Source of the DNA: Actinokineospora auranticolor
GTDB lineage: Bacteria > Actinomycetota > Actinomycetes > Mycobacteriales > Pseudonocardiaceae
DNA length: 64,000 nucleotides
Assembly (NCBI RefSeq): GCF_002934265.1
Contig: NZ_PTIX01000001.1
Span: 682,001-746,000, forward strand
Direction: 5' to 3'
In this document: piece after piece, positions 14,901 to 17,900 of the stretch
Layout of the letters: every line of letters starts with the position of its first letter
How positions within the stretch are numbered: position 1 is the stretch's first letter
Made by a program: the position numbers and the translations under genes
The notes under the pieces: model-generated
Seen by the model: only the letters and a program-made list of their open reading frames with translations
Database searches by the model: none
What the model was told of the DNA's origin: nothing

Positions 14901-17900
14901 GTGATCAAGGTCGTGCAGGCGCTGCGGCACGGCACCGTGCCCCGCACCCTGCACGCCGACGCGCCCACCCCGCACGTCACCTGGGCCGACGCGGGTGTGC
15001 GGGTCGCGTCGCGGCAGACGCCGTGGCCCCGGGTGGACCGGCCGCGTCGCGCCGGTGTCTCGTCGTTCGGCATCTCCGGCACCAACGCGCACGTCATCAT
15101 CGAACAGGCCCCGACCGTCGACGAGGCAGGCGTCGACGTCCCGGTGCTGCTGACCGCACCCGACCAGGAAAGCCTGGTCCGGCAGGCGAAAGCGCTCCTA
15201 GACAACCTGCGGGACGCGCCTGCCGGGGAGATCGGCGCGGTCCTGGCCACCCGCGCCCGGCACCAGCTCGGCATCGCCGTGCACGGCGAGTCGATCGCGG
15301 ACGCGCTCCGCTCGTTCGTCGACGGCGAGCCGCACGACGACGTGGTCCGGGGCGCCCGCCGACCCGGCAAGACCGTGTTCGTCTTCCCCGGCCAGGGCTC
15401 GCAGTGGGTGGGGATGGCGCGGGCGCTGCTCGACGAGTCCCCGGTGTTCCGCGCGGAGATCGAGGCCTGCGCCGCCGCGTTCGCCCCGCACACCGACTGG
15501 TCCCTCCTCGACGTCCTCGCCGGTGACGGCGCCGAGCTGGCGCGGGTCGACGTCGTGCAGCCCGCGCTGTTCGCCGTGATGGTGTCCCTCGCCGCCCTCT
15601 GGCGCGCCCACGGCGTCGAACCCGACGCGGTGATCGGCCACTCGCAGGGCGAGATCGCCGCCGCGTACGTCGCGGGCGCGCTGTCGCTCACCGACGCCGC
15701 CAAGGTGGTCACGCTGCGATCACAGGCGATCATCCGCATCACCGGCGACGCGGGCATGACGTCCGTCGCGCTGAGCGCGGACGACCTCGCCGAAGTACTC
15801 CCCACCTGGGGCGGAGCCCTCGAGATCGCGGCCAGGAACGCGCCGCGCTCGACCGTCGTCGCGGGTGCGGCCACCGCTCTGGACGAGCTGGCCGCGTGGT
15901 GCGACGAGCGCGGCGTGCGGGCCCGGCGCGTCCCCGTCGACTACGCCTCCCACACCCGCGCCGTCGAACCGCTGGAGCCGCACCTGGCCGCTGCGCTCAC
16001 CGGCATCACCCCGCGCGCCACCGGCCCGGCGTTCTACTCGGCGGTCACCGCCACGAGGCTCACCGGCACCGAACTCGACGCGGGCTACTGGTACACCAAC
16101 CTGCGGAGCCAGGTCCGCTTCGCCGACGCGGTGACCGCCGCCCTCGCCGACGGCCACGACCGGTTCATCGAGGTCAGCGCCCACCCCGTGCTCGTCGGCG
16201 GGATCGAGGCCGTGCTGGACGGCGCGGGCGGCGTGCTCGGCAGCCTGCGCCGCGACCGGGGCGACACCGCCGAGTTCCGCCGCGCCCTCGCCGCCGCCGA
16301 CCTCGTCGGCGCGCCCGTGCGCTGGCCCCGGCCCGGCCGGTGGGTCGACGTGCCGACCTACGCGTTCGAGCCGCGCCGCTTCTGGCTCGCCCCGACCGCC
16401 CGCTCGACCGACCGCGACGGGCACCCCGTGCTGGGCGCGCTCGTCCCGCTCGCCGACGGCGGCGCGGTGGCGAGCGGCGTACTCGACCCCGCGATCCACA
16501 CCTGGGTCGCCGACCACAGCGTCCTCGGGACCGTCCTGGTCCCCGGCACCGCCCTCGTCGACCTCATCGCGCACGCCGTCCCGGAAGGGCTCGGCTCGCT
16601 CACCCTCGAAGCGCCGCTGCCGCTGGCGGCGGTGACCCGCGTACAGGTCCGAGTGTCGACTCCGGACGAAGTGGGCAAGCGCTCGGTGTCGCTGCACTCG
16701 CGGACGGGCGACGGCGACTGGACCCGGCACGCGCACGCCGTCGCCGGACCGGTCGACCTCCCCGCCGGGCACGTGGACCCCGTCGGCGACCCGATCGACG
16801 TATCGTCCGTCTACACGCGACTCTACGAACTCGGCTACGACTACGGCCCCCGCTTCCAAGGCCTGACCGCGGCTTGGCGTGAAGGGGACACCGTGGTCGC
16901 CGAGGTCGCCGCCGCGACCAGCCCCGACGGCTACGGCCTGCACCCCTCCGTGCTCGACGCCGCGCTGCACCCCGTGGTCGCGGGCCTGACCCCGATCACC
17001 CCCGGCGCGGCGGGCCGCCCGCTGCTCCCGTTCGCCGCCGAGGGCGTCCGCCTGCCCGCGCGCGCCGAGGGCCTGCGCGTCCGCATCGAACCCCTGGGCG
17101 AGTCCCGCGTCCGCCTGGTGCTGGCCGACGGCGACGGCGTGATCACCGGCGGCATCGACTCCCTGTCGTTCCGCCCCCTCACCCCGACCCGCCCGCCGGT
17201 CCACCGCGTCGACTGGCGACCCGCGACCTTCGGCACCGCCGACGCCACCGTCCTCCCAGGCGCAGGCGACACCACCTTCGTGACCGGTACCGGCCAGGCC
17301 ACCGACACGTTCGTGCTGCCGATCGCCTCCGGAACCGGGCACACGCCATCGGAAGCCCTGGCACTGACCACCTTCACGGTCGCCGAGCTACAGCGCGTCC
17401 TCGCCGAGCCAGACGGCCGCGTCATCGTGGTGCGCCGGTCCGACGACCTCGCGGCGGCGGCCGCCGACGGCCTGGTCCGCTCGGCCGCCGCCGAACACCC
17501 CGGCCGCGTCGCGCTCGTCGTCGTGGACGAACCGACTCCCGTGGAGGTCATCGCCGGTATCCGCGAACCCGAGGCGCGCGTCACGCCGGACGGCGTCCTC
17601 GTGCCCCGGCTCGTCACCGCCGAACTCGGCGACGCGGGGGAGTGGCCGTCCGGCACGGTACTGATCACCGGCGGCACGGGCGCCCTCGGCGCGCTGGTCG
17701 CCCGCCACCTCGCCGCCCCCGGCCGCCACCTCCTGCTCGCCAGCCGATCCGGCCGCGCCCCCGACCTCGCCGACGAACTGCGCGAGCACGGCGCGGAGGT
17801 CACCGTCGCGGCCGTCGACGTCGCCGACCGCGCCGCGCTCGCCGCTCTGCTCGACACCCTCCCCGACGACAAGCCGCTGCGCGCGATCGTGCACGCCGCA

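What the first reader, a model, noticed from the sequence alone, without database searches (positions are those of the whole stretch)
15370..16290. Module 1 acyltransferase predicts an extra C-12 methyl compared with abyssomicin
Seen: AT1 has GHSQGE and YASH, the methylmalonyl signature shared with AT4 and AT5, while AT2, AT3 and AT6 have HAFH. Known: abyssomicin is built from five acetates, two propionates and a C3 unit, with malonyl in the first three extensions. Inference: this PKS would use four acetates and three propionates, placing a methyl on the diene that enters the Diels-Alder step. That also makes the C11-C12 alkene, the expected P450 target, trisubstituted.
Basis: partly seen in the sequence, partly recalled or inferred. 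Interest (0 to 1): 0.75.

Follow-up and report, generated by a model that had tools for sequence, protein, structure and literature searches.

The report
Methylmalonyl acyltransferase in abyssomicin-like synthase
The enzyme domain does look set to add an extra methyl group to an abyssomicin-like antibiotic, but that same extra methyl is already known in natural abyssomicins, so the finding is real and largely ordinary.

Summary
AT1 (window 15375-16313) carries the three methylmalonyl motifs RVDVVQ, GHSQGE and YASH and falls in a methylmalonyl clade at 100/100, grouped with the module-1 ATs of three related clusters. The methyl prediction is sound: methylmalonyl at extension modules 1, 4 and 5, malonyl at 2, 3 and 6.

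It is not new. The S. koyangensis abm cluster already has a YASH AT in its first extension module (PMC5819245). Type IIA abyssomicins carry methyls at C-12 and C-4 (PMC6100094). AbmU's natural substrate has the C-12 methyl on its diene (PMC11318650), and AbmV's has the trisubstituted alkene (PMC10107801). Three relatives share the six-AT pattern.

First, the loading module has lost its AT in frame (KSQ-ACP), while 10 of 10 related KSQ loading modules read keep one; the starter, and so 'four acetates', is not settled by sequence. Second, the Diels-Alderase is neither an AbyU orthologue nor clearly an AbmU one, so the spiro configuration is open.

Verdict: new member of a known kind, low interest. 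The missing loading AT is the odd part.

The parts
15375..16313 (+). AT1, extension module 1, predicted methylmalonyl-CoA specific (GHSQGE at 15636, YASH at 15942)
   Evidence: Pfam Acyl_transf_1; motifs; tree
11934..28301 (+). PKS gene B1: loading KSQ-ACP (no AT), module 1 KS-AT1-DH-KR-ACP, module 2 KS-AT2-DH-KR-ACP, module 3 KS-AT3-DH-KR-ACP
   Evidence: Pfam, domain scan
11955..13800 (+). Loading module: KSQ (VDTAQSS, near 12441) followed by ACP (from 13587); AT domain missing, junction in frame at about 13404-13450
20274..21173 (+). AT2, malonyl type (GHSIG, HAFH)
24942..25838 (+). AT3, malonyl type (GHSIG, HAFH)
28598..38269 (+). PKS gene B2: module 4 KS-AT4(YASH)-DH-ACP with no KR found; module 5 KS-AT5(YASH)-DH-ER-KR-ACP
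38279..41245 (+). PKS gene B3: module 6 KS-AT6(HAFH)-ACP
8073..9161 (+). A1-like ketoacyl-ACP synthase III (tetronate formation)
   Evidence: Pfam
9125..9394 (+). A3-like discrete ACP
   Evidence: Pfam PP-binding
9391..10131 (+). A4-like 2-oxoacid dehydrogenase acyltransferase
   Evidence: Pfam
10128..11198 (+). A5-like alpha/beta hydrolase
   Evidence: Pfam; 70-71% to Actinokineospora sp. NBRC 105648
11123..11908 (+). Type II thioesterase
   Evidence: Pfam Thioesterase
41254..43140 (+). A2-like glyceryl-ACP synthase (FkbH/HAD type)
   Evidence: Pfam Hydrolase; length 628 aa, close to abyA2 622 and abmA2 628
50660..51883 (+). Cytochrome P450, candidate epoxidase of the C11-C12 alkene; ferredoxin at 51888-52076
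   Evidence: Pfam; 317 bits to AbyV 7QAN, 426 to P450-SU1
53166..53675 (-). AbyU/AbmU-type Diels-Alderase (AOC_like)
   Evidence: PF18678 match; coordinates; tree

Best explanation
AT1 is the acyltransferase of the first extension module of an abyssomicin-type spirotetronate synthase in a genome of the same genus as Actinokineospora sp. NBRC 105648. It most likely selects (2S)-methylmalonyl-CoA. Module 1 (KS-AT-DH-KR-ACP) condenses the starter with it, reduces and dehydrates, and leaves a methyl on C-12 of the C12=C13 alkene. Modules 2 and 3 add malonyl units and the next two alkenes; module 4 adds methylmalonyl and leaves the C-7 ketone because it has no KR; module 5 adds methylmalonyl and fully reduces; module 6 adds malonyl. 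The A1-A5 enzymes release the chain as a tetronate with an exo-methylene. The AOC_like cyclase closes the spiro ring using the C-12-methylated diene, and a P450 probably epoxidises the trisubstituted C11-C12 alkene. The methyl pattern (C-4, C-6, C-12) is that of the known type IIA abyssomicins. Shown: domain order, motifs, phylogeny, conservation. Inferred: substrate, product, stereochemistry, P450 role, starter.
For: Motifs 3 of 3. AT1 lies in a YASH clade of 18 rows, 100/100, with the module-1 ATs of G016, G820 and G176 at 99/99, apart from the eight AT4/AT5 rows at 97/90, so it is an inherited module-1 AT and not a copy of AT4 or AT5. The same pattern (YASH, HAFH, HAFH, YASH, YASH, HAFH) in 3 of 3 relatives whose six extension ATs could all be read. 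Profile scores to solved ATs. DH1-KR1, DH2-KR2 and DH3-KR3 keep their catalytic motifs. Tetronate genes, cyclase and P450 are present. Published precedent: abm AT2 YASH, type IIA/IIB methyls, AbmU and AbmV substrates.
Against: No product or enzyme assay exists for this cluster. The YASH motif can mislead: in the tetronate tetromadurin a YASH AT sits where methoxymalonyl is incorporated. The A2-like FkbH gene is of a kind shared with methoxymalonyl pathways (recalled) and there is one weak methyltransferase match at 62215-62988; I did not see the other methoxymalonyl genes among the 33 translations scanned with Pfam, which is not a full search. The loading AT is missing, so the line may start differently or be poorly active. 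Collinearity is assumed. Five of the 51 tree rows have unusual composition, one of them a reference.
Confidence: 0.88

Rival explanations
1. The loading module, lacking its AT, is charged in trans with methylmalonyl (for example by a neighbouring AT), so KSQ makes a propionyl starter and the product has one more carbon than the reader predicts (C21 rather than C20).
For: Loading AT absent with KSQ and ACP active-site motifs intact; KSQ is 78% identical to its sister in G016, within the 74-84% of the other six KS domains; the adjacent AT1 is methylmalonyl type; the six fabD-model matches inside the window are the six PKS-embedded ATs, so no stand-alone AT was found in the cluster.
Against: 9 of 10 loading ATs of other loci have HAFH, the tenth GHGFH, pointing to malonyl. 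A probably discrete FabD-like frame exists elsewhere in the genome (C31, 348-aa frame, 229 bits, below that model's cut-off of 260.9) and could supply malonyl. The loading ACP is the least conserved of the six ACPs compared with G016: 62% against 64-79%.
Confidence: 0.15
2. The synthase is crippled: loss of the loading AT stops initiation and the cluster is on the way to decay.
For: Loss seen only here; 10 of 10 other KSQ loading modules read have an AT; the loading ACP is the least conserved ACP.
Against: No frameshift or stop within the B1, B2 and B3 frames; in-frame junction at domain borders; ACP and KSQ active sites kept.
Confidence: 0.15
3. The missing loading AT is an assembly error in a repetitive PKS gene.
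For: PKS repeats are known to be misassembled (discussed in PMC7176366, passages); 61 contigs, reads not available.
Against: Of the 27 matches listed for the junction stretch only the window itself spans the junction; the best other match is 83% over about 80 bases and lies to its right (40 of 995 first-look candidates were scored).
Confidence: 0.2
4. AT1 is relaxed or uses another branched extender (ethylmalonyl, methoxymalonyl).
For: A YASH AT with a methoxymalonyl product is reported in tetromadurin.
Against: AT1 scores 329 bits to 6iyr against 254 to 6iyt (that these are the methylmalonyl and ethylmalonyl salinomycin ATs is recalled); all three motifs are the standard methylmalonyl ones.
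Confidence: 0.05

Closest known systems
abm cluster, neoabyssomicin / abyssomicin 2, Streptomyces koyangensis SCSIO 5802 (PMC5819245, passages)
   Same: YASH methylmalonyl AT in the first extension module and in extension module 4; HAFH in extension modules 2, 3 and 6; KSQ loading; AOC-type cyclase; P450 (AbmV, from PMC10107801).
   Different: abm extension module 5 is malonyl (no C-4 methyl), here methylmalonyl; abm loading module has an AT, here none; abm extension module 4 has an inactive KR, here none was found.
Type IIA abyssomicins: ent-homoabyssomicins A/B and abyssomicins M-X (Streptomyces Ank 210 and LC-6-2; PMC6100094, passages)
   Same: Methyls at C-12 and C-4 as predicted here; a C-6 methyl as well is my inference from the type I and IIB structures.
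aby cluster, abyssomicin C, Micromonospora (Verrucosispora) maris (PMC3625739, passages)
   Same: Three PKS genes, loading plus six extensions, propionate at extension modules 4 and 5, ER in extension module 5, tetronate genes.
   Different: aby extension module 1 is malonyl; AbyU is only 31% identical to the cyclase here; aby's first module has an AT.
Type 2a potential abyssomicin clusters of Iglesias et al. 2020 (PMC7176366, passages)
   Same: A1, A3-A5 upstream of the PKS and A2 onward downstream; Actinokineospora is named among hosts.
   Different: AT specificities are not discussed in the main text (0 hits for 'malonyl' and 'AT domain'); supplements not read.

Membership tests
Methylmalonyl-specific cis-AT domain | RVDVVQ-type motif upstream of the active serine | tested here: met
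   [11 protein letters not shown]
Methylmalonyl-specific cis-AT domain | GHSQGE active-site motif | tested here: met
Methylmalonyl-specific cis-AT domain | YASH motif | tested here: met
Methylmalonyl-specific cis-AT domain | Groups with known methylmalonyl ATs in a tree | tested here: met
   100/100 with DEBS and other references
Methylmalonyl-specific cis-AT domain | Measured preference for methylmalonyl-CoA | not testable with these tools
   needs an enzyme assay
Abyssomicin-type spirotetronate cluster | Tetronate-forming genes A1-A5 | tested here: met
   Pfam matches; the A2 assignment rests on a Pfam Hydrolase match, length and position
Abyssomicin-type spirotetronate cluster | KSQ loading plus six extension modules in three genes, ER in extension module 5, no working KR in extension module 4 | tested here: met
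Abyssomicin-type spirotetronate cluster | AOC-type beta-barrel Diels-Alderase | tested here: met
   PF18678 116 bits, above cut-off 25.9; fold not modelled
Abyssomicin-type spirotetronate cluster | AT in the loading module (usual in aby and abm, not treated here as defining) | tested here: not met
Type IIA abyssomicin pathway | Extender pattern giving methyls at C-4, C-6 and C-12 | tested here: met
   predicted from ATs 1, 4 and 5
Type IIA abyssomicin pathway | 15S spiro configuration (type II) | not testable with these tools
   cyclase is 31% to AbyU and 29% to AbmU; does not decide
Type IIA abyssomicin pathway | Isolated product | not testable with these tools
   no metabolite data

The most novel reading that the evidence does not exclude
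A spirotetronate line that has deleted its own loading AT and is primed by an AT in trans, so that KSQ-ACP gives a different or mixed starter (propionyl or acetyl), feeding a 4,6,12-trimethyl chain to a third cyclase lineage whose facial choice cannot be predicted. The product would be a homologue or stereo-combination not among the abyssomicins described in the passages I read.
Probability: 0.15. Interest if true: 0.45.

Novelty: new member of a known kind. Interest (0 to 1): 0.25.

Why it matters
It places a C-12-methyl, type IIA-like abyssomicin pathway in Actinokineospora and shows that the methylmalonyl AT of module 1 is an inherited trait of a cluster lineage found in three genera. It also gives a natural test of published work: PMC11318650 found that C-4 and C-6 methyls push the Diels-Alder towards type I (AbmU too gave type I on that substrate), while AbmU turned the C-12-methyl, C-4-unmethylated substrate into type II. 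A chain with all three methyls and a cyclase close to neither enzyme would test which factor wins. The clean loss of the loading AT offers a case for how a KSQ-ACP module might be charged in trans.

Tried and rejected
Rejected: AT1 as a recent copy of AT4 or AT5 (separate clades). Rejected: the idea that the C-12 methyl is unprecedented. Considered and dropped: nomimicin as the closest relative; passages of PMC8404215 show C30 spirotetronates with a decalin, a larger class. Left open: type I or type II from the cyclase. The tree joins AbmU and G429 with the window clade at 91/93, but the program warns that these are long branches that may be joined falsely; by score AbmU is ahead of AbyU (50 against 34-37 bits for the window's, 36 against 23-25 for G176's). 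P450 orthology to AbyV not shown: 317 bits to 7QAN but 426 to P450-SU1. The genome-contig scan returned only 2 loci. The M. maris and S. koyangensis clusters were not found by name; their AT patterns are taken from papers. A search of the genus of G820 asked for 400 genomes and covered 13. Paper searches for KSQ loading modules lacking an AT gave 0 papers and 1 (seen as a listing only); this is no claim that none is in print. Module 1 not readable: G1080 and G1136 (contig ends), G703, G1056 and G1089 (no module-1 AT in the stretch); G411 only in part (GHSVG seen); G429 has a different module order. G187 was fetched (5,747 bases) and used no further.

Full report
OBSERVATION. The window holds an abyssomicin-type spirotetronate cluster: tetronate genes at 8073-11198, three PKS genes at 11934-41245, a glyceryl-ACP synthase-like gene at 41254, then transport, regulation, a P450 with ferredoxin and a Diels-Alderase downstream. 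Its motifs are as stated, AT4 and AT5 share them, and AT2, AT3 and AT6 have HAFH. A third motif agrees.

IS IT A METHYLMALONYL AT? Against solved structures AT1 scores 343 (Lsd14, 7s6b), 329 (6iyr) and 325 bits (DEBS 2hg4), but 154, 130 and 122 for 6iyo, 11sz and 9iyw. AT2 is the mirror image: 119, 125 and 129 against 207, 210 and 214. That DEBS uses methylmalonyl is established knowledge; the substrate labels of 6iyr, 6iyo, 6iyt and Lsd14 are recalled. In a 51-row tree of cluster ATs and seven references, the 18 YASH-bearing rows form one clade at 100/100, and AT1 groups with the module-1 ATs of G016, G820 and G176 at 99/99; the eight AT4 and AT5 rows form another group at 97/90. So AT1 was inherited as a module-1 AT and did not arise by copying AT4 or AT5 within this gene. 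Some inner forks are weak, and five rows (G854_M1, G461_M1, G390_M1, G390_M2 and the Lsd14 reference) have unusual composition.

CONSERVATION. Homologues of the A5 protein were sought in 390 genomes of the family (105 matched at E 0.001, most of them weakly), 392 of the genus of G390 (49 at 1e-60) and 394 of the class (25 at 1e-60). Of these I picked 13 with high scores and the window's own genome; 14 of 14 hold an AOC_like match above the cut-off. Stretches were taken from all 14 and from G187. A module-1 AT could be read in eight clusters: four of one lineage are methylmalonyl type (window, G016, G820, G176), and G390, G461, G854 and a second cluster of the window's own genome (C11) are malonyl type. 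The cyclases of G390, G461 and G854 are 76-78% identical to AbyU; those of G016, G820, G176 and G1080 are 65-75% identical to the window's. The three relatives with six readable extension ATs have the pattern of the window (a few motifs that the first script misread or missed, such as those of G016 M6 and G820 M5, come from the alignment).

WHAT IT MEANS FOR THE PRODUCT. In abyssomicin C, [1-13C]acetate labels C-1, C-7, C-9, C-11 and C-13 and [1-13C]propionate labels C-3 and C-5 (PMC3625739, passages), so the first extension gives C-11/C-12. A methylmalonyl unit there puts a methyl on C-12. DH1/KR1 to DH3/KR3 keep their motifs, no KR was found in module 4, and module 5 has DH, ER and KR (the script did not read the second DH5 motif, but the translation shows LLDTALH there). 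This gives the triene, the C-7 ketone and the reduced C-5.

COMPARISON WITH WHAT IS KNOWN. AbmB1-AT2, the AT of the first extension of the abm cluster, is YASH (PMC5819245, passages). Type IIA abyssomicins have methyls at C-12 and C-4, type IIB at C-12 only (PMC6100094, passages); that C-6 is methylated in both I infer. The review already attributes abyssomicin I's pattern to an AT that recruits methylmalonyl-CoA. The C-12 methyl on the AbmU substrate and the two cyclisation outcomes are described in PMC11318650 (parts 1 and 2 of 3 read); the trisubstituted alkene as AbmV substrate in PMC10107801 (passages). The cluster layout fits 'type 2a' of PMC7176366, which lists Actinokineospora among hosts (passages). 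The window therefore predicts a type IIA-like methyl pattern, a known kind.

(a) The loading module is KSQ-ACP without an AT: the sequence passes from the KS-AT linker to the post-AT linker at about 13404-13450 without a break in frame. Ten other loading modules were read (G016, G176, G820, G1080, G390, G461, G411, G854, G1136 and own C11); 10 of 10 have the KSQ glutamine and an AT, HAFH in nine and GHGFH in G016. Of 27 matches listed for the junction stretch in the own genome, only the window itself spans the junction (40 of 995 candidates scored). The fabD model finds only the six PKS-embedded ATs within the window, though FabD-like frames exist elsewhere. The KSQ is 78% identical to that of G016 (other KS 74-84%); the loading ACP, at 62%, is the least conserved of six ACPs (64-79%). 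The starter is thus undetermined. (b) The cyclase is a lineage of its own: 31% to AbyU, 29% to AbmU. Type I or II cannot be called. (c) The same genome has a second small spirotetronate-like cluster with malonyl in modules 1-3.

LIMITS. No chemistry; aby and abm PKS sequences were not in hand, only their published AT assignments and solved cyclase and P450 structures; the cyclase tree is short and has long branches; reads were not available to check the loading junction.

Noticed in passing
13404-13450 (junction) in 11955-13800: Loading module has lost its AT in frame, leaving KSQ-ACP; 10 of 10 relatives read keep the AT.
   Followed up: yes
31334-32171: No KR was found in module 4, nor in module 4 of G016, G820 and G176, whereas the aby and abm papers report a KR that is present but inactive.
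   Followed up: partly
L143 and L144 (G000:C11:127001-167000): Second small spirotetronate-like cluster in the same genome: KSQ-AT-ACP loading, modules 1-3 malonyl, module 4 methylmalonyl, modules 5-6 malonyl, with two adjacent AOC_like genes.
   Followed up: partly
53166-53675 (-): Diels-Alderase homologue of a lineage distinct from both AbyU and AbmU, shared with G016, G176, G820 and G1080.
   Followed up: partly
59619-61259 (+): Second P450 gene beyond the SARP-type regulator; role unknown.
   Followed up: no
5492-7693 (+): Bacteriophytochrome-type histidine kinase (PAS_2, GAF, PHY, HisKA, HATPase) just upstream of the tetronate genes.
   Followed up: no
43140-44434: About 1.3 kb between the A2-like gene and the luciferase-like gene in which the codon-composition script picked no gene (that script also missed some real genes).
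   Followed up: no
L146 (G000:C1, about 770.7-776.6 kb): A PKS module KS-AT(YASH)-DH-ER-KR-ACP about 25 kb beyond the window; its AT is the best DNA match to AT1 elsewhere in the genome, 71%.
   Followed up: no
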